Below are positions 1 through 28,216 of a DNA stretch of 64,000 nt, piece after piece (positions within the stretch are counted from its first letter, which is position 1; each line of letters opens with the position of its first letter). The translations under genes and the position numbers were made by a program. This DNA comes from Lachnospiraceae bacterium (GTDB lineage: Bacteria > Bacillota > Clostridia > Lachnospirales > Lachnospiraceae): NCBI GenBank assembly GCA_017472605.1, contig JAFUPV010000035.1:1-64000 (forward strand), read 5' to 3'. Below the pieces are notes generated by a model. That model had not been told where the DNA came from. It was given only the letters and a program-made list of their open reading frames with translations, and searched no databases.

Positions 1-142
1 AGGTAGCGGCAATACACTCCATCAAGTAGTCAAGCTACAGGGAAAAATCAATTGTCCACAGTATCTGGATTGTATTAAACCACGATATAAAACGAAAGGG
101 AATAAGGTGTATTCGCTTCTAAATACATCATACAAGGGAAAA

Positions 143-1465
143 ATGAGAGAAAGGAAGTTTGCCGGGAAACTGGCAACGACAGTCAGCATGGGAATACTGC
201 TTGTTGGGGGACCGGAAGTATTGACATGGGCGGAAACTGCTTTGATTGAGGGAGAAACTGTCCTGGAATCCGGTGTCTGCGGAGACAGCATGACCTGGGA
301 GGTGACAGAGCTGGATGGTGTTTTGACACTGACTATCAGCGGAAGCGGAGCGATGTACGACTATGCAGCGGATTCAGCACCCTGGAGCGCATACAAAGCG
401 GCAGAGAATCTTGTGTATGAGGGGGATATCACGCATATCGGAAACAATGCATACTGGTCGTTTTCCAGTTTCACGGGGGATCTGGTCATCCCATCCAGCG
501 TTACTTCAATAGGAGAATGGGCTTATGGAGGAACCGGCTTTAATGGGAATCTGATTCTGCCGGACAGTGTGACAACGATTGGAATGGGTGCGTTTACCAT
601 GTGTGGAAATCTGACCGGAGCGTTGGACATTCCGGACAATCTTACAACGATCAGCAGCTACACGTTTGATCGCTGCAGCGGATTAACCGGTGATTTGCTG
701 ATTCCGGACGGTGTAATGTCGATCCAGATTGCTGCTTTTTCCGGCTGCAGCGGTTTTACCGGAATTCTGGACATTCCGGAGAGCGTTACGGATATTCAGT
801 CAGAAGCGTTTCGGGGCTGCAGCGGTCTGACCGGTACGCTGGACCTGCCGGATGGTATTACCTCACTGCAGGATCATGTGTTTTTCGGCTGCAGCGGCTT
901 TACCGGAACCGTTGAGATCCCAGCCGGTGTAAATTACATTGCAAGTGATGCGATGAGCAGCTGTGAGGGCATAGATCAGGCGATTTTCTACGGCAATGCG
1001 CCGACAATCGGGGCGAATTGCTTTCCGGCTGATCTTGTGATTACCTATCATTCATCAAAAAGCGGCTGGTCAACACCGACCTGGAACGGGTACACGACAA
1101 CTGTGATTGAGGAAACAGTTGTGCTGGCAGAAGGAACCTGCGGAGATAATCTGACATGGAAAGTTGAGGATAACACAGGGATTCAGACATTGACCATCAG
1201 CGGAAGCGGAGCGATGTATGATTATTCGCCGGATTCATCAGCACCGTGGAGTTCTTACAATTGCGTTCAGGAAATTATCTATGACGGTGGAATTACGCAC
1301 ATTGGCGACTATGCGTTCTGGTCATTCAAGTCAGTTGATGGGGACCTGGTGATTCCATCCGGTGTCACTTCCATTGGAAACTATGCTTACGTGCAGCCGG
1401 TTATAACGGAACTCTGGTTCTGCCGGACAGCGTGGCAGAAATCGGTGAAGGTGCATTTACCATGA
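143..1465 (+). CDS. BspA-type leucine-rich-repeat surface protein, N-terminal part (split by frameshift)
   Basis: Secreted surface protein. The chosen ATG at 143 has AAGGG just upstream and opens a signal peptide (basic RERK, then a hydrophobic stretch ending near TWA-ET). A GTG at 107 in the same frame, with AAAGGG upstream, is a possible alternative start. A CGDxxTWxV...LTISGSGAMYDY module precedes BspA/LRR_5 repeats (IPSSVTSIGxxAF type), and the module plus LRR block occurs twice, near residues 35-330 and 330-430, which indicates internal duplication. The reading frame breaks around 1385-1395: after SIGNYAY the frame runs into an unrelated tail, while the expected LRR text continues in frame +1 of the next entry. 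Function is probably adhesion or matrix binding, by family analogy only. Confidence 0.8.
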   Translation: MRERKFAGKLATTVSMGILLVGGPEVLTWAETALIEGETVLESGVCGDSMTWEVTELDGVLTLTISGSGAMYDYAADSAPWSAYKAAENLVYEGDITHIGNNAYWSFSSFTGDLVIPSSVTSIGEWAYGGTGFNGNLILPDSVTTIGMGAFTMCGNLTGALDIPDNLTTISSYTFDRCSGLTGDLLIPDGVMSIQIAAFSGCSGFTGILDIPESVTDIQSEAFRGCSGLTGTLDLPDGITSLQDHVFFGCSGFTGTVEIPAGVNYIASDAMSSCEGIDQAIFYGNAPTIGANCFPADLVITYHSSKSGWSTPTWNGYTTTVIEETVVLAEGTCGDNLTWKVEDNTGIQTLTISGSGAMYDYSPDSSAPWSSYNCVQEIIYDGGITHIGDYAFWSFKSVDGDLVIPSGVTSIGNYAYVQPVITELWFCRTAWQKSVKVHLP

Positions 1466-2775
1466 GCAGTCTGACCGGTGAACTGGATCTGCCGGATGGA
1501 TTAACATCAATTGGAACATATGCTTTCAAAGAAGGAAGCGGATTTACCGGAAGTCTGGTGATTCCGTCCAGCGTCACTTCCATTGGTGACAGTGCGTTCA
1601 TGGACTGTACCGGCTTCAACGGAACGCTGACGCTGTCTGCAAATCTGACGGAGATCGGTGCAGGCGGATTTAACCGCTGTAAGAATCTGACCGGAGAGCT
1701 GGTGATCCCGTCCGGCGTGACGGCAATCCAGGGCTATGCGTTCAGTGGCTGTGGGTTCACCGGTGACGCAGTGATTCCGGAGAGTGTAACATACATTGGA
1801 GAAGCCGCGTTCTGGAATTGCGGAATCGATTCCATGATTTTTGATGGAAACGCGCCGGAATTTGCACCGGGACCGAAATTCTCTTCCACGATGACCTTCT
1901 ATTACTACCCGGATAAGACCGGCTGGAGTACACCGACCTTCAATGGATATGCGGCATATCCCATTGATGATGATTTCAATAAGAATGGACTGTATTATAA
2001 CGAAACGACAGGTGACTGGGAGTATCTGAATCATGGCAGTGTGGATACGTCCTTTACCGGCCTGACCAAGTACAACGGTTCCTGGTACTATGTGGAACAG
2101 GGAATCCTGAACTGGGATTTCACCGGTCTGGTTAAGAACAACGGAGCCTGGTACTATGTGGGCGGCGGAAAGGTAGACTGGTCCTACACCGGACTCTGCA
2201 AGAACAACGGTATGTGGTTCTATGTAAATGGAGGCGTTGTGGACTGGAGCTTTACCGGTCTGACCAAGTATTACGGAGCCTGGTTCTATGTATCAGGAGG
2301 TGTTCTTGACTGGAATTTCACCGGCTTCTGCAAGAACAACGGAATCTGGTTCTATGTGTCCGGCGGAATGGTAGACTGGAACTTTACCGGTCTGGCGAAG
2401 TTCAACGGAGCCTGGTACTATGCGGAGGGCGGTATGATCAACTGGGATTACACTGGTCTCTGTAAGAATAACGGAATCTGGTTCTATGTAGGAGGAGGCG
2501 TTGTGGACTGGAGCTACACTGGCCTCGTAAAATACAGCGGAGCCTGGTTCTATGTGTCCGGCGGAATGCTTGATTGGAATTTCACCGGCCTGACCAAGTA
2601 TAACGGAACCTGGTTCTATGTCAGCGGAGGAATGCTTGACTGGAATTACACGGGTCTGTGTGCAAATAATGGAATTCTGTTCTATGTTAGTGAAGGAATG
2701 GTTGACTGGAGCTTCAGTGGAACTGTGACTTATGAGGGAACAAAATATGAAGTGGTTGGCGGTTATGTGCGCTGA
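1432..2775 (+). CDS. BspA-type LRR surface protein, C-terminal part with wall-binding-like repeats
   Basis: Continuation of the preceding gene after a one-base frameshift. LRR coding sense actually resumes near 1396, so the ATG at 1432 is an internal methionine and not a true start. The part has about six LRR_5 repeats, then ten 22-residue aromatic repeats (TGLxKxNGxWFYVxxGxxDWxF) from about 2053 to 2712, then a shorter cap ending GGYVR. Repeats of this kind resemble choline/glucan-binding modules of Gram-positive cell surfaces, so anchoring to wall polymer is inferred. There is no LPXTG sorting signal. The intact ancestor would have been about 877 residues. A hairpin follows the stop. Confidence 0.8.
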   Translation: MAEIGEGAFTMSSLTGELDLPDGLTSIGTYAFKEGSGFTGSLVIPSSVTSIGDSAFMDCTGFNGTLTLSANLTEIGAGGFNRCKNLTGELVIPSGVTAIQGYAFSGCGFTGDAVIPESVTYIGEAAFWNCGIDSMIFDGNAPEFAPGPKFSSTMTFYYYPDKTGWSTPTFNGYAAYPIDDDFNKNGLYYNETTGDWEYLNHGSVDTSFTGLTKYNGSWYYVEQGILNWDFTGLVKNNGAWYYVGGGKVDWSYTGLCKNNGMWFYVNGGVVDWSFTGLTKYYGAWFYVSGGVLDWNFTGFCKNNGIWFYVSGGMVDWNFTGLAKFNGAWYYAEGGMINWDYTGLCKNNGIWFYVGGGVVDWSYTGLVKYSGAWFYVSGGMLDWNFTGLTKYNGTWFYVSGGMLDWNYTGLCANNGILFYVSEGMVDWSFSGTVTYEGTKYEVVGGYVR

Positions 2776-3012: not shown

Positions 3013-3660
3013 TTGAGACAGGTATGGGGCTTAGATGAGCGGATTACACCAGAAAAAATTAACGAAGGATATGAAATTGAAGCACAAAGGTATGGAAGAG
3101 ATAAGCAAGTGGCCATTAACCGCGGATACATTCAAAGCAGTGGATATAGAAGGAAATTTGATCTGATTTCCGGATCAGAGGAACTAAACCGTTTGTTATA
3201 TCAACTTGCGAAACGGATGCTGATACATAGATCCGGGACAAAGTACGAAGACATGTATTGGGTGAATTTGGCTACAAATAAAGTTGTAGCCTGGGAAACG
3301 GATTCTGAAAAAGAAGGAGAAATCAGGTATTCGCAGCGGACAAAAAAGGCAATTGCTGAATGTGATCAGCTTTTGACAATACATTCGCATCCCAATAGTC
3401 ATCCTCCCAGCATTGCGGACTTCAATTCAAACTACATGAATGCCTATAACATGGGGCTGGTGATATGTCATGATGGAACGGTGTATATGTATGAATCCAA
3501 TGAGATGGTGAATGAAGAGTACTTTTCCATGGTAGTTGCATATTATTTCAAGATGGGATATAATGAAAAAGAGGCACAGATCAGCGCACTGAATAAAATG
3601 CAGCAAAGGTTTCATATTTGGTTTAAGGAGGTTGGTCAGGATGAGTGCATACGAAAATGA
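3013..3660 (+). CDS. JAB/MPN-like putative metalloprotease, hypothetical
   Basis: 215 residues, soluble, with no signal peptide or membrane segment. Start is TTG with GGGAGGAG about 12 bases upstream. The central segment TIHSHPNSHPPSIADF reads as a JAMM-like motif: H124-x-H126, S133 and D136 match H-x-H-x(6-7)-S-x-x-D. A following beta-rich stretch (GLVICHDGTVYMY) fits a JAB-type core. Acidic residues upstream (near residues 96-104) could supply the motif's glutamate, but I cannot assign it. The 3' end overlaps the 56-residue partner gene. Known relatives of the fold are deubiquitinase-like peptidases, seen in toxin, phage and sulfur-carrier settings; the real substrate is unknown. Confidence 0.65.
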   Translation: MRQVWGLDERITPEKINEGYEIEAQRYGRDKQVAINRGYIQSSGYRRKFDLISGSEELNRLLYQLAKRMLIHRSGTKYEDMYWVNLATNKVVAWETDSEKEGEIRYSQRTKKAIAECDQLLTIHSHPNSHPPSIADFNSNYMNAYNMGLVICHDGTVYMYESNEMVNEEYFSMVVAYYFKMGYNEKEAQISALNKMQQRFHIWFKEVGQDECIRK

Positions 3661-3935: not shown

Positions 3936-4138
3936 ATGAGAAAAGGGAGTGGAAAACGAACAGCTGCAGCATGTGTGGCAGGAATGGTAATTGCATTGGC
4001 AGCAGGGCTCTGTACGCAATCTGTAGTAGCAGCTTATACAGGGGATGTAGAAACATGCGCAGAATTTGATGATATTACAGCGGAACGGTGACGCAGGATG
4101 GCGTGAAATATGAAGTAGTTGGTGGATATGTGCGTTGA
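3936..4138 (+). pseudogene. Collapsed relic of a repeat-containing secreted protein
   Basis: ATG at 3936 behind ACGAGGAGG starts a clear signal peptide (RKGSGKRTAAAC... ending VVAAY) plus about 15 residues. The frame stops at 4089-4091. In a different frame, starting at about 4074, lies the cap seen at the ends of the neighbouring proteins (YSGTVTQDGVKYEVVGGYVR, stop 4136-4138). Only the head and tail of a large gene remain, so the whole middle, including all 22-residue repeats, has been lost. The 51-residue head could still be secreted. Confidence 0.75.
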
Positions 4139-4150
4139 CTGAGAGTGGAT

Positions 4151-4183
4151 GCCGCATGGGAGAAATCTCATGCGGCGCTTTGT
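4151..4183 (+). terminator. 3' hairpin after relic gene
   Basis: Identical in its 26-base core to the hairpin at 2788, again followed by GCTTTGT. Confidence 0.55.
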
Positions 4184-4198
4184 ATTTACGCGGGCAGG

Positions 4199-4239
4199 GA
4201 GTCGGGCGAGGGCGCTCGTGTACTCATCACACGAGCGCC
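4199..4239. other. Perfect 11-bp hairpin in dispersed intergenic element
   Basis: GGCGCTCGTGT (4211-4221) pairs exactly with ACACGAGCGCC (4229-4239), loop of 7. The left flank GAGTCGGGCGAGGG matches 20767-20780 with one transition. There is no U-tract, so it is not a standard terminator. Confidence 0.5.
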
Positions 4240-4240
4240 T

Positions 4241-4621
4241 AAAGGTCGAGAGGTGAAAATAATGTCGAAAAATGTCGATTGATTTTGCTTGAATGATTCG
4301 TCTGAATTTGATAAGATTAGGAAGGGAATGACAGGATTAAGTTTGTCGGATTGACAGATAGTTGCCTCTGTGATATGATTGAAAAATAATTAAGGAATGT
4401 GTTGACATCTTTCTTCGATTGCTGTGGAAAACAAGTTCGATGATATCTGAAAAGCGATTGGTCGGATCTGCCAACCTCCTGAAAACAAAAACTGCACATA
4501 CGAAAGATAAAAAAGTACAGAAGAATGGCGAATCGGGTAAAAAGTTTTTTTATCCGGATTTACTATGCGGAAAATTTGTGGATTCGTAGGAAAGAACAGT
4601 TGTTGGAAAGGTGGTTTGGGT
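4241..4621. other. Intergenic stretch, no gene recognised
   Basis: Holds the right part of direct repeat B (to about 4340), then AT-rich sequence without a convincing coding frame. I see no clear -35/-10 pair for the downstream operon. Confidence 0.5.
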
Positions 4622-4957
4622 ATGCGGGAACAACAAATTTTTTGGAATCATTTGTTTCAGAGTAACATATTTTATTATCGAAAGGGAGATGGTGCTGCTT
4701 ATCTTGTCTTCTACATTTTTATCCCCGTGGTGGTAACTGCGGTGAGTCTTCTGGCATTTCCGGAAAATAACATATCAATGGTTTATTGCTATGTAACGAT
4801 ACTGGTCAGCGCGCTGAACAGCATCTATGACAGTGCCATGTGGCTGTTTGTCTATTTTCTGGCTGTTCTTGTTTCTCTGCTTGATGTCGTTGCCTGTTTT
4901 GTAAAAGACATGGCTTTCTGTGACTGGATGGAAAAGAGGGTAGAGGAGGATAAATAA
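4622..4957 (+). CDS. Small membrane protein, unknown
   Basis: 111 residues from ATG 4622, which has AAAGGTGG 8 bases upstream; an in-frame ATG at 4565 has no good ribosome site. It has two or three hydrophobic segments (YLVFYIFIPVVVTAVSLLAF; a middle MVYCYVTILVSAL; WLFVYFLAVLVSLLDVVACF) and a charged C-terminus. The stop is immediately followed by the start of the next gene, so it belongs to a tight three-gene operon ending in an ImmA/IrrE-type peptidase. I do not recognise the family; a holin-like or membrane-partner role is possible but unsupported. Confidence 0.65.
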   Translation: MREQQIFWNHLFQSNIFYYRKGDGAAYLVFYIFIPVVVTAVSLLAFPENNISMVYCYVTILVSALNSIYDSAMWLFVYFLAVLVSLLDVVACFVKDMAFCDWMEKRVEEDK

Positions 4958-5092: not shown

Positions 5093-5590
5093 ATGCAAGA
5101 GTCAGAAGCAGTGATTGCTGAATTTCTGAAAAGGAATCAGATCAAGGCAGGTGATCCGATTGATGTGATTGCGAAGGCTCTGAATGTGAAACCGGGAGGG
5201 GCAGATGGCGATATTTCGGGACAGGCTCGATTAAGTAAACCGGATCAGTCGGGAAGCATGACGGTAACGTTCCGAAAGGGGTTGATGCCGCAGGAGCGCT
5301 TATTTGCATTTGCCCATGAGTGCGCCCATTTGATTAATCAGGATCAGGCTCCTGCTGCACGTTCGGAGGGAAGAAACAAGCCAATGGCTGAACAACGTGC
5401 TGACTATACGGCTGCCGCGTTGTTGATGCCTGCCGATCATGTCTATGAGTATCTGAATGAGAATCACTATAGAGATACGACGGCGAGGAAGCGTGTGGCA
5501 CTGATCGGAAAACTCTGTAAAAGATATGGAGTGAGTGATGTGATCGCACTTCGGCGCGTGAAAGAAGTATATGCACTAAATCGGCAATGA
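5093..5590 (+). CDS. ImmA/IrrE family metallo-endopeptidase
   Basis: 165 residues. HECAH (H75, E76, H79) is the gluzincin HExxH zinc site, and the downstream EQRADYTAAALLMP segment supplies the third ligand typical of ImmA/IrrE. The family cleaves repressors (ImmR, DdrO) on mobile elements or in stress responses. The usual partner, an HTH repressor, is not next door; the neighbours are two small membrane proteins in the same operon (start abuts the previous stop). A role in toxin-antitoxin-like or phage-derived regulation is inferred only. The C-terminal part looks helical (TTARKRVALIGKLCKRYGVS). Confidence 0.85.
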   Translation: MQESEAVIAEFLKRNQIKAGDPIDVIAKALNVKPGGADGDISGQARLSKPDQSGSMTVTFRKGLMPQERLFAFAHECAHLINQDQAPAARSEGRNKPMAEQRADYTAAALLMPADHVYEYLNENHYRDTTARKRVALIGKLCKRYGVSDVIALRRVKEVYALNRQ

Positions 5591-5633
5591 ATAAAAGAAA
5601 TTGTTTCGAAAGAAAAAACGGGGGGGGATTGTG

Positions 5634-8111
5634 ATGAAAAAACGATGGATGAAAAAAGCGGCAGCGATGGTGTCTGCCGGAATAATTGCTGTCTACGGTC
5701 CGGGATGGGCTGCAGCATCGGTGACGGAGGAAACCGTCTGGAGTTCTGGTGAGGAAGTGACGCAGGAGGGCAAAGCGGAGACGATTGCTGAGAGTTTTGG
5801 CAGTGAAGCGGCCTGGGAGAGTGAAACGGAAGGAATTGCTGAGTGCTCCGGGGAAGAAGCAGAAACAGAGAGCGAAGCAGAGGAACCGGTCGGGACTTCT
5901 GAGGAAGAAGGAGCAGCAGAAAGAGGAGCAGAGGAATCGGTAGGAAGTCCGGAAGAGGAATCAACTTCGGAGAGTGAAGCAGAAGAGACAACTGACAGTC
6001 CGGAAGAGGAAAGCACCTTGGAGAGTGAAGCAGAAGAGACAGCAGACAGCCCGGAAGAGGAAATGACCTCAGAGAGCGAAGCAGAGGAGACAACGGACAG
6101 CCCGGCAGAAGAAACGACAGAGAGCTCCGGCGAGGAAGCAACATCGGAAAATGAAACCGAAGAAGCAGAATCCGAACCGGAAACATCCGATTCCAACGGG
6201 CAGGTGCAGATGGGAACGACTCTGATCCACATGGGAAATAATGTGTGGGAATACCATGTGGATGGGGAGCTGGATGCTTCCTATACCGGTCTGACAAAAT
6301 ACAATGGATCCTGGTATTACATAAAGAATGGAATTCTGGACTGGAGCTTTACCGGTCTGACGAAGCATAACGGTGTCTGGTACTATGTGAACAGCGGCAA
6401 GCTGGACTGGGGATATACCGGACTGTGTAAGAATAACGGAATCTGGTTCTATGTGAACGGCGGAATGGTAGACTGGTCTTTCACCGGACTGACAAAGTAT
6501 CATGGCGCATGGTTCTATGTGGCAGACGGTATGCTGGACTGGAATTTCACCGGCTTCTGCAAAAACATGGGAATCTGGTTCTATGTGAATGGCGGAATGG
6601 TGGACTGGAACTTTACCGGTCTGGCGAAGTTCAACGGAACCTGGTTTTACGCAGAAGGCGGAATGATCAACTGGAGCTATACCGGATTGTGTAAGAATCA
6701 GGGAATCTGGTTCTATGTGAACGGCGGAATGGTGGACTGGTCTTTTACAGGCGTGACGAAATATAAAGGCGGCTGGTTCTATGTGTCAGACGGTATGCTG
6801 GACTGGGATTACATTGGTCTGTGTGAGAAGAATGGAACGCTTTACTATGTGGAAGGCGGAATGATCGACTGGAGCTTTACCGGTCCTGTGGTACTGAATG
6901 CGGAACGCTATCAGGTGATCGGCGGCTACGTCCGCGGGAACGGCGAGGAGTCCGGAGACAGTCTGACGGCTGCCTGGCTGGCACAGGTGGAAGCGGCAAC
7001 GCTGCAGATGAGCGGCTCGCACCGTGTTGATGTGACATCGCTGACGCAGATCAGCGCGCAGAGCGTGCGGGAGATGGTCGAGGCGTATGCAGTGCCGAAT
7101 AAACCTTACCTGGACGGCGCTGCCCGGACCGATGGTGACTTTGATTCCGTGCTGAACCGAAGAAATCTGTCAGCAATCACGGAACCGGTTGTGCTGCAGT
7201 ATGGAATTCTGACTGACAATGCTTCTGTGCGTGCGTTTCCGACCTGGCAGAAGCTGTCTGACGGAACATCAGCAGATTCCTTTGACTATCTGCAGGAAAG
7301 CATGCTGATGGCAGGGGAAGGGGTTGTGATTCTTCATCAGACGGCAGATCGTGCCTGGAGCTTTGTACAGGCAGATTGCTATAACGGATGGATCGAAACC
7401 GGACGGATTGCGTTCTGTTCACGGGATGAGATGACTTCCTATATGAAATCTGAGGTATTTGCTGTTGTGACAGAACCGGTTCTTACTGTCGATGGTGTTT
7501 CTCTGCGAATGGGTACCAGACTGCCTTTGATCCATTTCCTGGGAGAGGAAGCAGTTCTTCAGATGGCGAAAACCGATGCAAATGGTACGCTGAAGCTGGT
7601 TGAAGTGACTGTCGATGCGAAACAGGTATCCTGCGGTTATCTGGAGCTGAGTGAAGAGGCAATGACTGCGCAGGCCAGGAAACTGCTTGGAAGCAGCTAT
7701 GGATGGGGCGATACGAACGGAAACATGGACTGCAGCTCAACGCTCCGCGCAGTCTATCACTGTTTTGGCATCATTCTTCCGCGGAATACGTCCTGGATGA
7801 GCAGCTGCGGTCTGAAGGTGATTGATCTTCAGATGATGAGCTATGAAGAGAAGAGAAAAGTAATTGCAGAGCTGCCCTTAGGAAGCATTCTTCTGATCAG
7901 CGGTCATGCGATGATGTACATGGGAGAAGAAAACGGTGTGGAGAGCATGCTTCATAACGTGACACAGTATAAGCCGTCTGCCAGTGAGGAGCTGATTCGT
8001 CCGATGAAATGTGTGATTACGCCGGTTGTGATCTGCAATGCATCCGGAACCAGCTATGTGGATCTGTATCGGTATGCGGTCTGTGTTGACTGGGCGCAGT
8101 TCGAGGAGTAG
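5634..8111 (+). CDS. Secreted NlpC/P60 peptidase with SH3-like domain and internal wall-binding-like repeats
   Basis: 825 residues. ATG 5634 follows a G-rich ribosome site; an upstream in-frame TTG (5601) is less likely. Order: signal peptide (to about 27), a long Glu/Ser/Thr linker made of imperfect SESEAEETxDSPEEE units (about 30-190), nine 22-residue aromatic repeats (about 215-415) closed by a GGYVR cap, an SH3-like segment (about 515-600), then an NlpC/P60 domain with C700 in MDCSST and H758 in SGHAMMY. Such enzymes cut peptidoglycan stem peptides outside the cell. Unusually, the repeats sit in the middle with the enzyme at the C-terminus. It ends 24 bases before the next gene and is likely cotranscribed with it. 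Confidence 0.88.
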   Translation: MKKRWMKKAAAMVSAGIIAVYGPGWAAASVTEETVWSSGEEVTQEGKAETIAESFGSEAAWESETEGIAECSGEEAETESEAEEPVGTSEEEGAAERGAEESVGSPEEESTSESEAEETTDSPEEESTLESEAEETADSPEEEMTSESEAEETTDSPAEETTESSGEEATSENETEEAESEPETSDSNGQVQMGTTLIHMGNNVWEYHVDGELDASYTGLTKYNGSWYYIKNGILDWSFTGLTKHNGVWYYVNSGKLDWGYTGLCKNNGIWFYVNGGMVDWSFTGLTKYHGAWFYVADGMLDWNFTGFCKNMGIWFYVNGGMVDWNFTGLAKFNGTWFYAEGGMINWSYTGLCKNQGIWFYVNGGMVDWSFTGVTKYKGGWFYVSDGMLDWDYIGLCEKNGTLYYVEGGMIDWSFTGPVVLNAERYQVIGGYVRGNGEESGDSLTAAWLAQVEAATLQMSGSHRVDVTSLTQISAQSVREMVEAYAVPNKPYLDGAARTDGDFDSVLNRRNLSAITEPVVLQYGILTDNASVRAFPTWQKLSDGTSADSFDYLQESMLMAGEGVVILHQTADRAWSFVQADCYNGWIETGRIAFCSRDEMTSYMKSEVFAVVTEPVLTVDGVSLRMGTRLPLIHFLGEEAVLQMAKTDANGTLKLVEVTVDAKQVSCGYLELSEEAMTAQARKLLGSSYGWGDTNGNMDCSSTLRAVYHCFGIILPRNTSWMSSCGLKVIDLQMMSYEEKRKVIAELPLGSILLISGHAMMYMGEENGVESMLHNVTQYKPSASEELIRPMKCVITPVVICNASGTSYVDLYRYAVCVDWAQFEE

Positions 8112-11100: not shown

Positions 11101-11201
11101 TCTGGTACTATGTAGACGGTGGAATGATCGACTGGAATTATTCCGGAACGGTGACACAGGACGGAATCAAATATGAGGTAATCGGCGGATATGTCCGCTG
11201 A
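8136..11201 (+). CDS. Secreted CAP-domain protein with Ig-like domain and wall-binding-like repeats
   Basis: 1021 residues. ATG 8136 has AAAGGGGAG upstream. Order: signal peptide (ends near FALAS), Glu/Thr-rich acidic linker (about 30-150), a CAP-associated N-terminal domain (about 160-430, LFGEPKLI...), a CAP/SCP domain (about 465-600, with DYINAIRAGAGL and GHRYVLLNPYAEFIGVG), a middle beta region, a Big_2 bacterial Ig domain (about 715-800, ending GTVTIEA), then nine aromatic 22-residue repeats and a GGYVR cap. CAP proteins in bacteria are extracellular, often envelope-associated, with poorly defined activity. The modular tail suggests display on the wall. A hairpin follows the stop. Confidence 0.88.
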   Translation: MKRLGVSSIIAVVLSASLIVSPVGFALASPIPDTETTEDRAGEPEDSETAAVAEEIVSEAGTTEEVTGEPETFETEAAEGGTEPEADKTEKVSGEAAEELPAETDAMEETSKEPETEDVTAAEAETSEAGTAEVGSEASALNETGETEIQTAAVSGTLLIEINGKTVTDAMKLEDVTVLFGEPKLITDSFWGGKACTFYGENYSDFLYLETYADGLIAAFGSMTPGFQTATVCYDDRFNLNQKIPGEAQLHDGLKICAYLGYSNLEDGWMDVWYADAAENNKNLNLHVVEMWNAFSWLYGNQETITFNENAFYMNQQLADNCSDLYRYCELNAKEEFFLYSYESGETTDYGTYKYPNPMEFISSAATLDSDIGYASAAIVRKTADGADYRLVGLIDCDFFVEKKIVEYTEEEKQQLQQAKGLYSHSVSVYNEGYDEGYFLREPQYETIPLDEGEINPKVLQGAVDYINAIRAGAGLSLLKYSEELMNAAQCKATLTKYYAFNNLENPNPHFPAQPEGLDDAFYAKTQLGTSENLFMAGFFGGSVITSLLNALDDTAGSGQYYERGHRYVLLNPYAEFIGVGTADIQGCHKLSGSVSSDVDVVAWPSKGIMPKESGFSSDTMMTCRFYNGYIPASDTIVTVTCLNTDEVWTIDSSQLQSGQDFFVNGKLISYMDTGISFTVGNIYQITFDHLRDSSGTDVSYSYRSVFESIWTDCDALYPEEIRLSDTAVTMLKGDTVKVQAKLSPVGIAHAYVGWKSSDTGIATVNANGYITGISGGTVTIEAITANGISATCIVTVVDPGENYTGLAECGGTWYYVTNGVKDSDFTGLTKYNNSWYYVKNGVLDWSFTGLCKNLGIWFYVKNGKVDWSYTGLCKHNGAWFYVAGGMLDWSFTGLTKYNGAWFYVENGMLNWNYTGLCKNNGIWFYVNGGMVDWSYTGLCRHNGMWFYVAGGMLDWNFTGVTKYNGVWFYVENGMLNWNYTGLVKNNGVWYYVDGGMIDWNYSGTVTQDGIKYEVIGGYVR

Positions 11202-11213
11202 CTGGTGGCGAAT

Positions 11214-11243
11214 GCCGCACGGGAGAGATCCTGTGCGGCATTT
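11214..11243 (+). terminator. 3' hairpin after CAP-domain gene
   Basis: GCCGCAC (11214-11220) pairs with GTGCGGC (11233-11239), inner GGA/TCC, then ATTTAG. Same family as the hairpins at 2788, 4151 and 22986; U-tract poor. Confidence 0.55.
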
Positions 11244-11345
11244 AGTGTGAGCCGCTTGATTCGGAAACATGGAAAACCGCTTGCGGGGCATGGAGTAAAA
11301 TGTTATGATGGATATCAAAGAAGTGGTTACGTGGAGGATAGTGGA

Positions 11346-13712: not shown

Positions 13713-15593
13713 ATGAAGCAGAGGTATGTTGGTAAAGGGATCACTGTGTTAATGATTCTGTTTTTCGCAACCGCGGTTCTGTCGCTGGCGGTCAGGGAGT
13801 CATGGGCAGCCGAGGATCAGGAGCCGGTTCGGGTAGATGCCAGAGGAAGAGCTTTGTCGGGAGATTGCGGTGCCAATCTGCGCTGGGAAGTCAAAAAAAC
13901 AGTGGGAGGGAGTGTGCTGACAATCAGTGGAACCGGTGAAATGTACGATTATTCGCGCATGAATCCAGCTCCCTGGCATGATCTGCTGTCCGATGGGGAA
14001 TCGGTATGTTCTCTTGTATTGGAAAATGGAATAACAAAGATTGGAAGTTACGCATTCTTTTCCAGCAGCGGGATGACCGGGGAACTGACGCTCCCAGAGA
14101 GCCTGAAGCAGATTGGTGCTCATGCATTTGACAGCTGTGTGAATCTGTCCGGTGAGCTGAAGCTGCCGTTGGGCTTGATGGATATTGCGAATGACGCGTT
14201 TTATGGATGTCTCGGGTTTGATGGAGATCTCGTGATTCCGGATCGTGTAACGAATGTCGGAGAATATGCGTTTTATGGCTGCATCGGTTTTGATGGAGCG
14301 TTGATCCTTTCCGAATCGCTGACAGAGATCGCGGATGGAGTGTTCAGTAATTGCAGCAATTTAAGCGGGGAATTGAAGCTTCCGAAGGGAATTGCATCGG
14401 TTGGCGACGAAGCGTTTTGCTGGTGCATCGGACTGAATGGCAATCCGGTTCTTCCATCCGGTCTTACATTCATTGGGGAACGTGCATTTTTTATGTGTAC
14501 CGGACTGGAAGGGAACCTGGAGCTTCCGCAGCAGCTGACATCGATTGGCGGATATGCGTTTTACGGCTGCACTGGCTGGAATGGCAATTTGAAACTGCCA
14601 ATATCTCTGCAGAACATCGGAGCATATGCATTTTGGGGCTGCAGCGGATTTCAGGGAAGTCTGAAGATTCCGTTTCGTGTGAAGCAAATCGGGGAAGCCG
14701 CATTTTATGGCTGTACCGGTTTTGGCGGAACGCTGGAGATTCCGGAGAAAGTTGCAGAAATCGGAGAATGCGCGTTTGCCGATTGCATCGGATTTCGTTA
14801 TTGCTCAGGAGCTTCGGCTGGCGTAAGACTCATTGGAACGGAGATCTTCAGAAATTGCGGCGGTCTTGATCAGGAGAAGGATGTCAATTATCTCCTGGAG
14901 TATAATGAAAGCAGAGGATACTGGGAATATCTGGAAAACGGTGAAGGAAACCGATTCTATTATGGACTCGCAAAAAATGATGAAACCTGGTACTTCATAA
15001 ATGACGGAATCGTTGACTGGGATTATACCGGCTTGGTGATGCATGATGGGATGTGTTTCTATGTGCAGAATGGTGTTCTGAATTGGGAAATCGATGGTCT
15101 GATCCAGTTTGCGGGAACCTGGTATTATCTGGAAAACAGTAAGGTGGCAGACAGCTATACCGGTCTGGTGAAAAAGGATGATGTCTGGTACTATGTGAAC
15201 GGCGGTGTGCTTAACTGGAACTATACTGGTTTGGTGAAACACAACGGCAGCTGGTTCAGTGTAAAAAATGGTGTGCTGGATTGGAATGATAGAGGGCTGA
15301 TCTATCACAGGGAATCCTGGTATTATGTACAGAATGGAATGATTGATTGGGGATATACCGGTCTGGTATCGGATGACGGAGTTTGCTGCTACATTCAGAA
15401 CGGTGTGCAGGATCCGGAATACACAGGACTGATACTGCAGGATGAAGTTCAGTATTACGTTGTGGACGGATATGTTGACTGGAATTACAACAGTCTGGTA
15501 AAGGATGGAGAGAAATGGCTGTGCGTCCGGGGTGGAATGGTTGATCAGAGTTATGAAGGTCTGTTTTTTATGAAAACAGCTGGTACTATGTGA
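13713..15593 (+). CDS. BspA-type LRR surface protein with degenerate repeats (3' frameshift)
   Basis: 626 residues as read. ATG 13713 follows AGGAGG. Signal peptide ending SWAAED, a CGANLRWEV...LTISGTGEMYDY module, about 13 LRR_5 repeats (residues about 105-385), then nine 22-residue repeats that are more diverged than in neighbours (WYF, CFY, CCY and LCV variants). The frame ends early at GLFFMKTAGTM. One more T in the T6 run at 15564-15569 would restore the tenth repeat and the cap to 15679. Probable adhesin-like protein; repeat divergence plus frameshift suggests decay or variable expression. Confidence 0.8.
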   Translation: MKQRYVGKGITVLMILFFATAVLSLAVRESWAAEDQEPVRVDARGRALSGDCGANLRWEVKKTVGGSVLTISGTGEMYDYSRMNPAPWHDLLSDGESVCSLVLENGITKIGSYAFFSSSGMTGELTLPESLKQIGAHAFDSCVNLSGELKLPLGLMDIANDAFYGCLGFDGDLVIPDRVTNVGEYAFYGCIGFDGALILSESLTEIADGVFSNCSNLSGELKLPKGIASVGDEAFCWCIGLNGNPVLPSGLTFIGERAFFMCTGLEGNLELPQQLTSIGGYAFYGCTGWNGNLKLPISLQNIGAYAFWGCSGFQGSLKIPFRVKQIGEAAFYGCTGFGGTLEIPEKVAEIGECAFADCIGFRYCSGASAGVRLIGTEIFRNCGGLDQEKDVNYLLEYNESRGYWEYLENGEGNRFYYGLAKNDETWYFINDGIVDWDYTGLVMHDGMCFYVQNGVLNWEIDGLIQFAGTWYYLENSKVADSYTGLVKKDDVWYYVNGGVLNWNYTGLVKHNGSWFSVKNGVLDWNDRGLIYHRESWYYVQNGMIDWGYTGLVSDDGVCCYIQNGVQDPEYTGLILQDEVQYYVVDGYVDWNYNSLVKDGEKWLCVRGGMVDQSYEGLFFMKTAGTM

Positions 15594-15679: not shown

Positions 15680-15706
15680 CTACTTCAGGAAGTGACAGGA
15701 GGAGAA

Positions 15707-17227
15707 ATGACGAAAAATAGTAGGGAATCAGCGGGCAAATGGCTGTTTATCTATATTGTTACAGCCGTGCTGTTGGCTTGGATGCCGATTCGAACAAATG
15801 CAGAAGAACTGATGATTGTCTGTAGTGATGATGGAATTTTAATGGTTTCGGAGGAGGCATACAGCGAAAGTGATGTTTCCGGCATCGCAATACCGGATGG
15901 TGTTTTAATCATTGGAAAGAGTGCGTTTTATAACTGTACGTATCTGGAACAGGTATCAATACCGTCCAGTGTGACATCAATTGGAAGCTATGCGTTTTCT
16001 GGATGTACCAGCCTGAAGGAACTGGAATCTCTGGCAGCGGTAACAGTGATTGAAGAGTATACCTTCGAACGGTGCAGCAGCCTTCCACGGTTTGCAGTCC
16101 CGGCCAGTGTAACAGCAATCAATCGGGCGGCATTCCAGGGGTGTACCAGTCTGGAATGTGTGGTGATACCTGCAGGCGTAACGTTGATTGCAGATAATGT
16201 GTTTTCAGGATGTGATGTTCTATTCTGCGTGGAAGCAGGATCCTATGCGGAAGCATATGTGCAGCAGAACGGGTATCGGTATGTATACAGCACAGTTTAT
16301 TATACCGGTCTGTATGAGAAAGACGGGCAGTTATATTACATGAGTCAGGGTGTCACAGATTATAGTTGTACGGGTCTGGTTCTGCACAGCGACGGGAAAA
16401 ACTACTATGTTTCATCCGGACTTGTGGATACCGTTTTTACCGGGTTGATAAAGCATGACGGTACCTGGTATTACGTGGAGAATGGAATCGTGGCTTCGGA
16501 TTATACCGGACTGGTGAAGAATTCAACCAACGGTCTCTGGTTTTACGTGGAAAGCGGAATGGTGAACTGGGGGTATACCGGTCTTGTGAAGAATCCGTCT
16601 AACGGTCTCTGGTTCTATGTGGAAGGCGGAATGGTGAACTGGGGATATACCGGTCTTGTGAAGAATCCGTCCAATGGTCTCTGGTTTTACGTGGAGAGCG
16701 GAATGGTGAACTGGGAGTATACCGGTCTTGTGAAGAACCCGTCCAACGGTCTCTGGTTCTACGTGGAAGGCGGAATGGTGAACTGGGAGTATACCGGTCT
16801 TGTGAAGAACCCGTCCAATGGTCTCTGGTTCTATGTGGAAGGTGGAATGGTGAACTGGGAGTATACTGGTCTTGTGAAGAACCCGTCCAACGGTCTCTGG
16901 TTCTACGTGGAGAGTGGAATGGTGAACTGGGGATACACCGGTCTCGTGAAGAATCCCGCCAATGGACTTTGGTTCTATGTGGAGAATGGAATGGTAAACT
17001 GGGGGTATACTGCTCTTGTGAAGAATCCGGTCAATGGAATCTGGTTTTATGTGGAAAACGGAATGATTAACTGGGAATATGAGGGGCTGGTTCTGCAGAC
17101 AGATGGAAGGTACTATTATGTTTTCGGTGGAATGATTGACTGGTCGTTTACCGGGGTGGTTGAGCAGGATGGACAGGTGTACATGGTGCAGGACGGTTAT
17201 GTCAGGTGGAATGTTACCCCTGGCTGA
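15707..17227 (+). CDS. Short BspA-type LRR protein with eight near-identical 24-residue repeats
   Basis: 506 residues. ATG 15707 lies just behind AGGAGG (15697-15702); an in-frame GTG at 15692 overlaps that site and is rejected. Signal peptide ending TNAEE, about five LRR_5 repeats (residues 45-185), three typical aromatic repeats, then eight 24-residue units TGLVKNPSNGLWFYVEGGMVNW from 16502 to 17077, two residues longer than the array's usual unit, and two diverged units at the end. The usual GGYVR cap is replaced by QDGYVRWNVTPG. High DNA identity between units shows recent tandem amplification. Secreted, wall-associated by inference. Confidence 0.85.
   Translation: MTKNSRESAGKWLFIYIVTAVLLAWMPIRTNAEELMIVCSDDGILMVSEEAYSESDVSGIAIPDGVLIIGKSAFYNCTYLEQVSIPSSVTSIGSYAFSGCTSLKELESLAAVTVIEEYTFERCSSLPRFAVPASVTAINRAAFQGCTSLECVVIPAGVTLIADNVFSGCDVLFCVEAGSYAEAYVQQNGYRYVYSTVYYTGLYEKDGQLYYMSQGVTDYSCTGLVLHSDGKNYYVSSGLVDTVFTGLIKHDGTWYYVENGIVASDYTGLVKNSTNGLWFYVESGMVNWGYTGLVKNPSNGLWFYVEGGMVNWGYTGLVKNPSNGLWFYVESGMVNWEYTGLVKNPSNGLWFYVEGGMVNWEYTGLVKNPSNGLWFYVEGGMVNWEYTGLVKNPSNGLWFYVESGMVNWGYTGLVKNPANGLWFYVENGMVNWGYTALVKNPVNGIWFYVENGMINWEYEGLVLQTDGRYYYVFGGMIDWSFTGVVEQDGQVYMVQDGYVRWNVTPG
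16502..17077. repeat. Tandem repeat, 8 units of 72 bp
   Basis: In-frame coding repeat. The first and last units are the most diverged (NSTNG, NPVNGI) and the central units nearly identical, the pattern expected from unequal crossing-over or slippage. Confidence 0.9.
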
Positions 17228-20650: not shown

Positions 20651-20723
20651 GCGCCTCTAGCTCAGTTGGTAGAGCACCTGACTCTTAATCAGGGTGTCCA
20701 GGGTTCGAGCCCCTGGAGGCGCA
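20651..20723 (+). tRNA. tRNA-Lys (anticodon CTT)
   Basis: 73 nt: acceptor GCGCCTC pairs with GAGGCGC, D-arm AGCTCAGTTGGTAGAGC, anticodon loop CTCTTAA, T-arm CAGGGTTCGAGCCCCTG, discriminator A. CCA is not encoded. Identical to the tRNA at 35687. Confidence 0.97.
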
Positions 20724-21019: not shown

Positions 21020-21057
21020 AATCAAAGCGTATAAAAATGGTTTCATGGGAGGTATAT

Positions 21058-22977
21058 ATGAAAAGGGGATTCATTCGACATATCATGATCTCTGCCATTG
21101 TCACTATGATGTTTCTTATGAGTCAGCTTGTCGCTGCCAGTGAAATAGAGTCGATAACAGAATCGTTTACGGAAGAGGAAATTGAGACAGAAACAGAAGT
21201 GACAGCGGTTTCGCTTGCTGAGCAGGAGGAAATGTCAGATCTGGTGCCTGTGGAAGGGACGGCAGCGGCAGAGATGCCAGTTGTGGATTCTTTCGAAACG
21301 GAAGCGGTGATGGCTGCTGCAATTTCAGAGACAGATACTGTTGATTCGATGGAAGTAATTTCCGTGAATCCAATGTTCGAAGCAATTTATGGACGAGCTT
21401 ATTTAGAGTCATTGCTTACCGCTGCAGGAGCAGGCGATCCAATGACAGCAGCTGTTACATATGGAACTCAGGAAGAAGCGGTTGCAATTTTGAAAGCTGC
21501 ATTAATGGAGAGAACGACTTCTGTCAGCATCGGTTTACTGTCGGCTTCCAAACCGTCTTCATCCATGATGTCTGAGATTTTTCAGGGAGCGATTGCATGT
21601 GACAGTGGATCCGGTTCCTATGATGGTGACGCACTTCGCAGTGATTACCTTAGCTGGAAAGCAAGCGGAAGCTATTACACCAGAAGCGGTCAGTACTATA
21701 TCACGATGAAGTTTACAGTTGTATACTGTACAACCGCGGAGCAGGAAACGGTTCTGCGTGCTGCCATTACGAGCAAGGTGGAAGAAATGAACCTGAAATC
21801 TCTTCCAGAAGATGAAATAATTCGAGAAATTCACGATTTTATCTGCAGCACGGTCAGTTATGACCATTCAACCGACAGTGGAACACTGAAGCATTCTGCT
21901 TATGCAGCGATGATTAATAAAAAAGCGGTATGTCAGGGTTACACATCTCTGTTTTACCGCATGTGCCGGGAAGCCGGAGTGTCCGTTCGAATGATTACCG
22001 GAGTCGGTATAAACAATAGCGGAGAGACAGAAGATCATGCATGGAATATTGCTTCCGTATCCGGAAAGTACTATAATGTAGATACTACATGGGATGCTGG
22101 AAGTTCAGTACGCTATACTTATTTCATGAAGTCTGATGCAGAGTTCCCTAATCATACCCGTGATGATGAATATTTGACAGAATCGTTTCAGCAGAGCTAT
22201 CCCATGTCTGCAAGTTCTTATGCACTCAAGGATTCCTCTGAGAACGAAGCAAAGCTGAATGGTCTGGTTGATACGGGAAATCAGCTTGTTTATTATGTAG
22301 ATAACGCGATTCAGAGCAGCTATACCGGACTTGTTACTCAGGACAATGTCATGTATTATGTGGAAAACGGTGTTGTTAATACCGGATTCACCAGTCTGCT
22401 TAAATTTGAAGGAACCTGGTATTACATTGAGGCAGGAAAGGTAAATACCGGATTTACCAGTCTGTTTAAATATAATGGAGCCTGGTATTATATCGAAAAT
22501 GGAAAGCTGAACTGGAATTTTACCGGTCTGACCAAGTATAACGGAGTCTGGTATTATGTACGCGGTGGTGTTCTTGACTGGAATTACAGCGGTTTATGTA
22601 AAAACAATGGAATGTGGTTTTATGTAGGGAACGGACAGGTGGACTGGAATTTTACTGGTCTGACGAAGTACTGCGGTGCCTGGTTCTATGTAGCAGGAGG
22701 AATGCTTGATTGGAATTATACTGGTCTGTGTAAGAATAATGGAATGTGGTTCTATGTAGGAAATGGACAGGTAGACTGGAATTTTACCGGTCTGACTAAA
22801 TACTGCGGAGTCTGGTTCTATGTAGCAGGAGGAATGCTTGACTGGAATTACATTGGTCTGTGCGTGAATAATGGCGTATTATATTATGTAAGTAATGGAC
22901 AGGTCAACTGGAATTATACCGGAACTGCAATCTATAATGGTGTGACGTATAACGTAGTGGGCGGATATGTCAGATAA
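21058..22977 (+). CDS. Secreted transglutaminase-like protein with wall-binding-like repeats
   Basis: 639 residues. ATG 21058 follows GGGAGG by 5 bases; the in-frame ATG at 21037 lies upstream of that site and is rejected. Order: signal peptide ending VAAS, an acidic Glu/Thr linker (about 25-95), then a transglutaminase-like core with the Cys-His-Asp triad C292 (VCQGYT), H327 (HAWN) and D342 (VDTTWD). Ten aromatic 22-residue repeats follow (about 405-620) and a VVGGYVR cap. The superfamily includes protein cross-linking and peptidase members; the substrate here is unknown. Repeats 6-7 and 8-9 are a near-exact 132-bp DNA duplication. A strong hairpin follows. Confidence 0.88.
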   Translation: MKRGFIRHIMISAIVTMMFLMSQLVAASEIESITESFTEEEIETETEVTAVSLAEQEEMSDLVPVEGTAAAEMPVVDSFETEAVMAAAISETDTVDSMEVISVNPMFEAIYGRAYLESLLTAAGAGDPMTAAVTYGTQEEAVAILKAALMERTTSVSIGLLSASKPSSSMMSEIFQGAIACDSGSGSYDGDALRSDYLSWKASGSYYTRSGQYYITMKFTVVYCTTAEQETVLRAAITSKVEEMNLKSLPEDEIIREIHDFICSTVSYDHSTDSGTLKHSAYAAMINKKAVCQGYTSLFYRMCREAGVSVRMITGVGINNSGETEDHAWNIASVSGKYYNVDTTWDAGSSVRYTYFMKSDAEFPNHTRDDEYLTESFQQSYPMSASSYALKDSSENEAKLNGLVDTGNQLVYYVDNAIQSSYTGLVTQDNVMYYVENGVVNTGFTSLLKFEGTWYYIEAGKVNTGFTSLFKYNGAWYYIENGKLNWNFTGLTKYNGVWYYVRGGVLDWNYSGLCKNNGMWFYVGNGQVDWNFTGLTKYCGAWFYVAGGMLDWNYTGLCKNNGMWFYVGNGQVDWNFTGLTKYCGVWFYVAGGMLDWNYIGLCVNNGVLYYVSNGQVNWNYTGTAIYNGVTYNVVGGYVR

Positions 22978-22985
22978 GAACTTGA

Positions 22986-23013
22986 CGTGCGGGAGAAATC
23001 CCGCACGATTTGT
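22986..23013 (+). terminator. Terminator after transglutaminase gene
   Basis: Perfect stem CGTGCGGG / CCCGCACG around AGAAAT, followed by ATTTGTTT. Best-formed member of the array's 3' hairpin family. Confidence 0.7.
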
Positions 23014-23112
23014 TTACATGGACTAACTGAGTCATTCAACAGGAGATACAGAAGATGCGTATCTGTCTCGTAAAAACGGAAAGACGGTGTGCGATCTGGA
23101 AATGGAGAGAGA

Positions 23113-25623
23113 ATGAGAAAACTGTGGAAGCAGAGCGTGAAAATAATTGGTATGACAGGACTGCTCCTCCTGGGAAACGGTTGGAAATCCTGTTGGGTAC
23201 AGAATGTTTTTGCAGAGGTGACAGAATCAGTCGAAGCTGAAACAGAGCAGTTTACTTGGAAGATTGAGAATGGCTATGCGGTAATCACCGGCTATCAGGG
23301 AGATGGAAACGGGTTCGTTATACCGGATATGATTGATGGATGTCCGGTAACATCGATTGACGAGTGGGCATTCTATGACTGTGATTGTCTGAACGGTGTG
23401 ATTACGCTGCCGGAAACAGTTCAGTCGATTGGTGATTATGCGTTTCGGGAATGTGATAATATAACCGGGATTGTTTTTTCATCCACTCTGAAAACGCTGG
23501 GAACAGGAGCCTTTTCCGGCTGCTCCCGTTTGGGAGAGGAGATGGACTGTCTAACCATCCCTGCAGGAGTGGGAGTGATAGAGAATCAGACATTTTATGA
23601 CTGCGCATCACTTGGCAGTGTCTACCTGCCGGATACAGTTACAGTAATTGGTGAAGGAGCCTTTTCCGGCTGCACGTTGCTGAAAGAGATAACCATTGGA
23701 AATGTATCGCAAATTGCCATGCATGCCTTTTCCGGTTGCTCAAGTCTTCAGATCATTGCACTTCCTGAGTCACTGACTTATCTGGGACGTAATTGCTTTG
23801 AAGCGTGTACCTCACTGATGAGCATTGCACTACCGGAGAGCCTGACATCGGTTCCGGATTACTGCTTTGCAGACTGTGCAGCTCTGGAACGTGTAACCTT
23901 CGGCAGTTCTGTTCGGACAATTGGGCAATATGTTTTTTCCGGCTGTGTACGATTGAAGAAAATTACGATTCCAGTCAGTGTAACAACGATGTATACGGAG
24001 TCTTTTTACAATTGGAAGAGTTGGGGAACTCTGGTTGTTTATAAAGACAGCTACGGCGAGACATATGCTCAGAATAAGTCAGTACCGTATGTATACACAA
24101 CGGAGGTTGATCAGATCACAGATGTATTGATTGGAATGTATCGCTGCAGGATCCAGGAAAATCAGATTGCAATTACTGGCTATATCGGGACAGAAAGCGA
24201 TCTGGTTATTCCTTCTGAGTTGAACGGGTATCCGGTTTCTTCCATCTGCTCAAATGCGTTTCGCTACAATGTGGCAGTGGAGCGGATTACGATACCGGAA
24301 ACGGTTCATACAATTGGCACTTACGCGTTTTCTGACTGTTCTGCGCTTCAGGAAGTGAAACTTCCGTCTGCGCTGACAAAACTGGAAGAGGGGGTATTTG
24401 CCAATTGTACCGCTTTTACTGAGATTACAGTTCCAGATTGCCTGAAGACAATTGGTACAGCGGCGTTTGCAGGCTGTACCAGTCTGCAGACAATCGGTTG
24501 CGGAGAAAAAATAACGCTGATTGATGCCTATGCGTTCATGGGGTGCAGAAATCTGACCAGTCTGATTCTTCCAGAAACGCTGCTGTCAGTGGGGGATGGA
24601 GCATTTCAGGGGTGTGTATCACTGAGAGAACTGACAGTTCCGTCTTCCGTAACAAGGATTGCTGCGAATGCTTTTTCACAGTGTACGTCTCTTAGTGAGC
24701 TGGTAATTAAAGGGGCACCGACAATTGGTACCTATGCATTTGGCGAGTGTACAGCCCTCGTTTCAATTCAATGGCCAGAGTCGATTTCCAGTATTAGCAG
24801 TTACGCATTTTATGGATGTTCATCTCTGACGGAGGTAAAGCTGCCTGACAGTCTAATGACAATTCCTGAATTTCTGTTTGGAAACTGCAGCGCCCTGAAG
24901 ACGGTATACCTGTCAGATCAGGTAAAGTCTTTTGGATTTGGATGTTTTTCCGGATGCGATCAGTTAAATGTAATTGTATGCGGAAGCGGCAGTGAAACAG
25001 AGACTGATCGGGGATCAGAAGAAAATGTGGAAATGGAAGGCAGTGCAGAAACGGAAGAACGTACAGAAGCCGAAGAAAATGCAGAAGCAGAAGGAAATGC
25101 GGAAGTGGAAAGCAGTGTAGAAACGGAAGAACGTACGGAAGCCGAAGGAAACGCAGAAGCAGGAGAAAGTGCAGAAGTAGAAGGCAGCGCAGAAACGGAA
25201 GAACGCACGGAAGCCGAAGAAGACGCGGAAGCCGAAGGAAGTAAAGAAACCGAAGAAAGCGCAGAAACGGAAGAACGCACGGAAGCCGAAGAAAACGCGG
25301 AAACGGAAGGAAGTGCAAAAGCCGAAGAAAGCGCAGAAACGGAAGAACGCACGGAAGCCGAAGGAAACGCGGAAACAGAAGGAAGTGAAGAAGCCGAAGA
25401 AAGTGCAGAAACGGAAGAATGCACGGAAGCCGAAGGAAACGCGGAAGCCGAAGGAAGTGCAGAAGTCGAAGAAAGCGCAGAAACGGTAGGAAGTACGGAA
25501 GTTCAAGAAAACGCAGATACAGGAGAAAACATGGGAATCGAAAAGAGGATAGAGACAGCCTCAACAGGAGTATGGCAGTGGCTGCTGCGTTTCCTGCTGC
25601 GTCTTCTGCAATGGTTGATTTAG
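23113..25623 (+). CDS. BspA-type LRR protein with long acidic repeat tail and hydrophobic C-terminus
   Basis: 836 residues from ATG 23113 (GGAGAG upstream). Signal peptide ending NVFAE, then two LRR_5 blocks (about 50-330 and 345-620), each opened by a YxxxITGYxGxxxxxVIPxxxxGxPV module. About 635-805 is a low-complexity repeat of ETEERTEAEGNAEAEGSAE units. The protein ends in an amphipathic or membrane-like segment, VWQWLLRFLLRLLQWLI. It carries no aromatic repeats and no LPXTG. The tail may anchor in the membrane by a mechanism unlike its neighbours; that is inference from hydrophobicity. Confidence 0.82.
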   Translation: MRKLWKQSVKIIGMTGLLLLGNGWKSCWVQNVFAEVTESVEAETEQFTWKIENGYAVITGYQGDGNGFVIPDMIDGCPVTSIDEWAFYDCDCLNGVITLPETVQSIGDYAFRECDNITGIVFSSTLKTLGTGAFSGCSRLGEEMDCLTIPAGVGVIENQTFYDCASLGSVYLPDTVTVIGEGAFSGCTLLKEITIGNVSQIAMHAFSGCSSLQIIALPESLTYLGRNCFEACTSLMSIALPESLTSVPDYCFADCAALERVTFGSSVRTIGQYVFSGCVRLKKITIPVSVTTMYTESFYNWKSWGTLVVYKDSYGETYAQNKSVPYVYTTEVDQITDVLIGMYRCRIQENQIAITGYIGTESDLVIPSELNGYPVSSICSNAFRYNVAVERITIPETVHTIGTYAFSDCSALQEVKLPSALTKLEEGVFANCTAFTEITVPDCLKTIGTAAFAGCTSLQTIGCGEKITLIDAYAFMGCRNLTSLILPETLLSVGDGAFQGCVSLRELTVPSSVTRIAANAFSQCTSLSELVIKGAPTIGTYAFGECTALVSIQWPESISSISSYAFYGCSSLTEVKLPDSLMTIPEFLFGNCSALKTVYLSDQVKSFGFGCFSGCDQLNVIVCGSGSETETDRGSEENVEMEGSAETEERTEAEENAEAEGNAEVESSVETEERTEAEGNAEAGESAEVEGSAETEERTEAEEDAEAEGSKETEESAETEERTEAEENAETEGSAKAEESAETEERTEAEGNAETEGSEEAEESAETEECTEAEGNAEAEGSAEVEESAETVGSTEVQENADTGENMGIEKRIETASTGVWQWLLRFLLRLLQWLI
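25030..25500. repeat. Coding repeat of acidic GAA-rich units
   Basis: Imperfect tandem units translating as AETEERTEAEGNAE. The purine-rich codons create long spurious open frames on the opposite strand. Confidence 0.8.
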
Positions 25624-28210: not shown

Positions 28211-28216
28211 TACCAG

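What the first reader, a model, noticed from the sequence alone, without database searches (positions are those of the whole stretch)
107..25623. Modular array of secreted proteins sharing one wall-binding-like repeat block
Seven genes, one a relic, share the same 22-24 residue aromatic repeats or their cap, while the front modules differ: LRR_5, NlpC/P60, CAP+Ig, transglutaminase. Together they look like one display platform with exchangeable catalytic or adhesive heads, possibly diversified by recombination in the repeats. The 22-residue unit is seen directly; its binding to a wall glycan or teichoic polymer is inferred.
Basis: partly seen in the sequence, partly recalled or inferred. Interest (0 to 1): 0.75.

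Follow-up and report, generated by a model that had tools for sequence, protein, structure and literature searches.

The report
Clustered surface-repeat protein genes
Six neighbouring genes of an unnamed bacterium, plus the tail end of a lost seventh, join the same repeat block to different working parts, probably to hold proteins on the cell surface; the architecture is a known one, unusual here mainly because all the repeats of this kind found in the genome sit in one place.

Summary
Six ORFs carry 22-24-residue aromatic repeats, and a seventh gene survives only as a cap plus terminator (4078-4338). The repeats are Pfam PF21540 (Choline_bind_4), far over the cut-off in all six. Heads differ: LRR_5 (three), NlpC/P60+SH3, CAP+Big_2, transglutaminase-like. 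All 51 matches in the 3.68 Mb genome lie in this window. One block models at high confidence (pLDDT 96.4) as a beta-hairpin solenoid resembling pneumococcal choline-binding modules, glucan-binding domains and toxin CROPs. Relatives join the repeat to GH25, NlpC/P60, YkuD, SASA, transglutaminase and LRR heads. Surface display with exchangeable heads is thus well supported by analogy; no binding is shown. Choline is doubtful: no association with LicD in 299 genomes and no choline kinase over cut-off in 10 genomes, though this genome has one LicD gene. In G035, without a LicD hit, four repeat genes are interleaved with a teichoic-acid locus; but the window's own genome lacks TagF- and TagD-type hits, so its ligand stays open. 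Known kind; modest interest.

The parts
107..1465 (+). First part of gene A: leader (by eye) and LRR_5 head; frame ends at 1465
   Evidence: PF13306 143.4 bits; frames overlap at 1432-1465
1432..2775 (+). Second part of gene A: rest of the LRR_5 head, 10 repeat units, cap
   Evidence: PF21540 196.2, LRR_5 88.8 bits; units
4078..4338 (+). Relic of a seventh gene: cap, stop, terminator-like hairpin and 3' flank only
   Evidence: 76.8% identity to 2715-2976; hairpin at 4150-4177
5601..8111 (+). Gene B: leader (by eye), Glu-rich stretch, 9 repeat units and cap, then SH3_6 and NlpC/P60
   Evidence: PF21540 178.5, SH3_6 54.8, NLPC_P60 30.8 bits
8136..11201 (+). Gene C: CAP domain, Big_2, 9 repeat units, cap
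   Evidence: PF21540 192.7, Big_2 39.6, CAP 30.1 bits
11205..13634 (+). Lipase_3-like protein inside the array, without repeats
   Evidence: PF01764 31.1 bits; no PF21540 match
13713..15593 (+). Gene D: LRR_5 head and 9 diverged units; frame lost before the cap
   Evidence: PF21540 117.1, LRR_5 185.8 bits; cap continues in another frame
15692..17227 (+). Gene E: LRR_5 head, 10 units of 22-24 aa with fresh tandem growth, cap-like end
   Evidence: PF21540 202.5, LRR_5 112.9 bits; tandem array 16498-17080, 72-nt period
21037..22977 (+). Gene F: transglutaminase-like head, 9 repeat units, cap
   Evidence: PF21540 149.8, Transglut_core 50.1 bits
23089..25623 (+).
   Evidence: PF13306 409.5 bits, no PF21540 match; 36- and 72-nt tandem repeats

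Best explanation
This is a locus of secreted modular surface proteins. Each has an N-terminal export leader, one working module (LRR adhesin-like, NlpC/P60 peptidase, CAP, transglutaminase-like) and a Choline_bind_4 beta-hairpin solenoid with a terminal cap that holds the protein non-covalently on the cell wall or one of its secondary polymers. The block spread by duplication within the locus and became joined to different heads. Shown: repeats, heads, shared blocks, single-locus confinement. Predicted: the fold. Inferred: export, wall binding, ligand. The ligand class I think likeliest is a secondary wall polymer (teichoic-acid-like or another phosphate-containing glycan), not necessarily choline.
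Confidence: 0.7

Rival explanations
1. The repeats bind choline on wall or lipoteichoic acid, as in pneumococcal choline-binding proteins.
For: Family name and curated model PF21540; solenoid arrangement shared with LytC, LytB and C-LytA; one LicD gene in the genome, 102.5 bits.
Against: No association of the repeat with LicD: 7 of 11 repeat-positive genomes against 185 of 299 overall, Fisher p = 1.0; 5 of 8 when only over-cut-off genomes count. Of the five genomes with 20 or more repeat matches, G000 and G160 have LicD and G035, G061 and G159 do not. No choline kinase over cut-off in 10 genomes searched, though 4 have weak sub-cut-off matches. The third residue of the unit is Leu, Val or Phe in all 56 units, where the weak profile alignment to C-LytA shows Trp.
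Confidence: 0.2
2. The block binds carbohydrate outside the cell (exopolysaccharide, mucin or plant glycan), as glucan-binding domains and CROPs do, so the proteins are soluble or matrix-bound enzymes and adhesins.
For: CROPs and GH70 glucan-binding domains are among the best fold matches; the aromatic repeats would suit sugar stacking.
Against: Three of nine scanned relatives carry peptidoglycan-acting heads (GH25, NlpC/P60, YkuD), as does gene B. G035 places the genes in a teichoic-acid locus.
Confidence: 0.2
3. A decaying, neutral repeat family left by an old duplication burst.
For: Two of six genes have frame changes and a seventh is a relic.
Against: Four long ORFs (B, C, E, F) show no break; key columns stay conserved (first-strand Trp in 48, Tyr in 53, a Gly in 55 of 56 units) although mean third-position identity is only 0.55 within and 0.49 between genes.
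Confidence: 0.06

Closest known systems
Choline_bind_4 (PF21540) repeat proteins of related bacteria
   Same: Same repeat model far over cut-off; NlpC/P60, transglutaminase and LRR_5 heads occur in both
   Different: In the window's genome all 51 matches sit in one 21-kb stretch; in G159 and G160 the listed matches lie on many contigs
Pneumococcal choline-binding proteins (LytA, LytB, LytC, CbpF, CbpJ)
   Same: Predicted beta-hairpin solenoid; repeat block fused to unrelated heads
   Different: Units of 22-24 aa rather than about 20; no Trp at the third position; below the PF01473 cut-off; choline not implicated by co-occurrence
Glucan-binding domains of GH70 enzymes and CROPs of large clostridial toxins
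   Same: Related solenoid arrangement in the fold searches
   Different: No Pfam match to a toxin or glucansucrase part in these proteins
BspA-type LRR_5 surface proteins
   Same: LRR_5 heads in genes A, D and E
   Different: Here joined to the repeat block

Membership tests
Choline_bind_4 (PF21540) | Whole-protein score over the curated cut-off (27 bits) | tested here: met
   196.2, 178.5, 192.7, 117.1, 202.5, 149.8 bits in six of six repeat ORFs
Choline_bind_1 (PF01473) | Score over the curated cut-off (20.5 bits) | tested here: not met
   17.9 bits in gene A and 11.1 in gene D, not listed at E <= 1 for the other four; the two genome matches lie on contigs C9 and C69, not in the window
Choline-binding-module fold | Stacked beta-hairpins in a solenoid | tested here: met
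Choline-binding proteins | Choline site of aromatic residues of consecutive hairpins plus a Met or Leu of the connecting loop (PMC12029793, passage) | tested here: inconclusive
Choline-binding proteins | Organism decorates its wall with choline | tested here: inconclusive
   One LicD match; choline kinase only at 22.1 bits, below its cut-off of 29
Choline-binding proteins | Binding to choline or wall | not testable with these tools
   Needs protein and wall preparations
Glucan-binding domain / CROP | Carbohydrate ligand | not testable with these tools
   Only the fold arrangement was compared

The most novel reading that the evidence does not exclude
Choline_bind_4 is misnamed for much of its family: it is a docking module for secondary wall polymers that differ between species. 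Some bacteria keep the docking kit beside the genes that make the polymer: interleaved with a teichoic-acid locus in G035, and next to a phosphoglycerol-transferase-like, acyltransferase and CDP-deoxysugar cluster (25677-35368) in the window.
Probability: 0.25. Interest if true: 0.6.

Novelty: new member of a known kind. Interest (0 to 1): 0.36.

Why it matters
If the repeats dock to a species-specific wall polymer, they give a handle on the surface polymers of little-studied bacteria and on how non-covalent surface proteins gain new functions. The result also warns that the family name alone should not be read as evidence for choline on the wall. Otherwise it is one more example of a known architecture.

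Tried and rejected
Choline as obvious ligand: tested by co-occurrence and not supported.

Solved structure of the repeat by sequence: no PDB match at E <= 0.01 for the gene A block; the profile search at E <= 10 listed four sequences, the best C-LytA (1h8g) at E 0.029, the other three unrelated by name.

Phage or plasmid origin of the repeat: the viral contig scan gave 31 pattern matches and 0 relatives. The phage collection gave one record, MT836339.1, whose genes look chromosomal (topoisomerase-like and tRNA-nucleotidyltransferase-like, judged by eye). Plasmids gave none at E 1e-5.

Same locus in the genus: of three genomes searched, G260 has no PF21540 match and G299 (84% complete) has two, on other contigs and under a different head. 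In G299 trmB and the carboxypeptidase gene are neighbours with no match to array proteins on the 11.7-kb contig; in G260 trmB lies near a contig end and nothing else of the window matched in the 10 kb fetched.

Recent gene conversion between genes: not supported by block identities, though 31 of 56 units have their nearest relative in another gene.

Teichoic-acid neighbourhood elsewhere: in G021 and G160 glycerophosphotransferase genes share contigs with repeat matches but lie more than 20 kb away. I did not examine every repeat locus of these genomes, and one search lists and scores only part of the matches of repeat-rich genomes (28 each).

Papers: the listings (12 of 366 shown) showed me no paper on this repeat in such an array; most subscription papers are not in that library. 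Two papers name Choline_bind_4: I read passages of PMC13284279 and only the listing of PMC12294143. Of PMC5817068 I saw passages and one section, of PMC12029793 passages, of PMC5705596 abstract and outline.

Full report
What is there. In window 107-22977 six ORFs carry tandem aromatic repeats. I call them A (1432-2775, split from 107-1465), B (5601-8111), C (8136-11201), D (13713-15593), E (15692-17227) and F (21037-22977). I cut 56 units: 47 of 22 residues, eight of 24 and one of 23. The strongest columns are a Gly (55 of 56), a Tyr (53), a second Gly (52) and two Trp (49 and 48). Blocks end in a shared cap, which is internal in B because B's catalytic part follows the repeats. Whether these are real or assembly errors is not known.

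Family. All six are far over the cut-off of Pfam PF21540, Choline_bind_4 (117-203 bits against 27), while PF01473 reaches its cut-off in none of them. Heads: LRR_5 in A, D and E; SH3_6 plus NlpC/P60 in B; CAP plus Big_2 in C; Transglut_core in F. The Lipase_3 ORF (11205-13634) and the LRR_5/Glu-rich ORF (23089-25623) have no repeats. In the whole 3.68 Mb genome (75 contigs) 51 of 51 PF21540 matches at E <= 0.001 lie between 2050 and 22908 of the window; 14 control genomes have none. The window starts at the first base of contig C6, so the locus could continue beyond it.

How the locus arose. Between A and B, whose heads are unrelated, the best DNA match is in register over nine units (75.4%; every other offset at most 71.9%). 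A and C match over 600 columns to 38 nt past both stops (73.8%); the first 40 nt after the stops are 70% identical, the first 60 nt 58%. D's cap region matches the relic (59 nt, 81.4%), and so does C's (96 nt, 78.1%). So blocks and 3' ends were duplicated within the locus. Mean unit identity is 0.66 within and 0.62 between genes, 0.55 and 0.49 at third positions; 31 of 56 units have their nearest relative in another gene. None of the 45 longest cross-gene matches printed exceeds 76%. This reads as old exchange rather than recent conversion. Gene E shows the freshest tandem growth (87% matches); B, C and F have higher-order repeats at about 79-82%. In the congener G299 the flanking carboxypeptidase and trmB genes are neighbours without the array; in G260 the 10 kb fetched around trmB hold no array protein, but the contig ends there.

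Ligand. The family name suggests choline. Among 299 genomes of the family 11 have the repeat (8 over cut-off) and 185 have LicD. LicD is in 7 of the 11, no enrichment (Fisher p 1.0; 5 of 8 in the stricter set). Of the five genomes with 20 or more repeat matches, G000 and G160 have LicD; G035, G061 and G159 do not. No choline kinase over cut-off was found in 10 genomes searched, the window's own included; 4 had weaker matches. The own genome has one LicD match, so choline is not excluded. For a wall polymer: in the single-contig genome G035, four repeat genes with GH25, NlpC/P60, YkuD and SASA heads lie in about 20 kb, alternating with four Glyphos_transf genes, a glycerol-3-phosphate cytidylyltransferase, a ribitol-5-phosphate cytidylyltransferase, an ABC-2 permease and a TagH-like ATPase. 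Against a general rule: the own genome has neither PF04464 nor TIGR01518 matches, and G159 has neither PF04464 nor LicD. In the window the array is followed by two Acyl_transf_3 genes, a Sulfatase-family gene whose best NCBIfam match is phosphoglycerol transferase I (below that model's cut-off), and three CDP-sugar genes over cut-off: glucose-1-phosphate cytidylyltransferase, CDP-glucose 4,6-dehydratase and RfbH. That neighbourhood is suggestive only.

Relatives. One search lists 17 distinct repeat ORFs in the loci fetched; I scanned nine with Pfam. Seven have a recognisable head: GH25, NlpC/P60, YkuD, SASA, transglutaminase, LRR_5, and DUF285 with LRR_5. One has only Big_2 besides the repeats, one nothing.

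Literature. A review (PMC5817068, one section read) already places wall-binding repeats of about 20 residues in the Lachnospiraceae and other families. A 2026 paper (PMC13284279, passages) reports gut phage endolysins with Choline_bind_4, one with thirteen units between GH25 and YkuD. The kind is therefore known.

Verdict. Observation confirmed, with the span trimmed and two broken genes added. Interpretation partly supported: modular surface display is the best reading (0.7), the ligand is open, and exchange between genes looks old while tandem growth in gene E is fresher.

Noticed in passing
25677-35368: Likely surface-glycan cluster: two Acyl_transf_3 genes, a phosphoglycerol-transferase-like gene, glucose-1-phosphate cytidylyltransferase, CDP-glucose 4,6-dehydratase, RfbH-type enzyme and a TPP enzyme whose best PDB match is 8rph. 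From recall, this resembles branched-chain sugar (yersiniose-type) synthesis.
   Followed up: partly
20651-20723 and 35687-35760: Two tRNA-Lys genes with the same anticodon (ctt), one of them between array genes E and F.
   Followed up: no
5093-5590: ImmA/IrrE-type peptidase (Peptidase_M78), weak match to the PADLOC model capP (44.4 bits), just upstream of gene B; two ORFs without Pfam or PADLOC match at 3013-3660 and 4565-4957.
   Followed up: partly
L046 2207-3949 and L047 10015-11637: Congener G299 has two proteins with variant PF21540-type repeats on another head that looks SGNH-hydrolase-like by eye (the L046 protein gave only PF21540 in Pfam).
   Followed up: partly
25030-25528: Glu-rich tandem repeat (36- and 72-nt periods) near the end of the LRR_5 ORF, followed by a short hydrophobic tail.
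   Followed up: no
L067 1-10986 (MT836339.1): A record filed as bacteriophage looks like bacterial chromosome by its genes (by eye) and carries a repeat protein 45.5% identical to the gene C block.
   Followed up: partly
L062 1542-3221: Elsewhere in the own genome a D-Ala-D-Ala carboxypeptidase-like protein (by eye) carries a PF01473-type repeat.
   Followed up: partly
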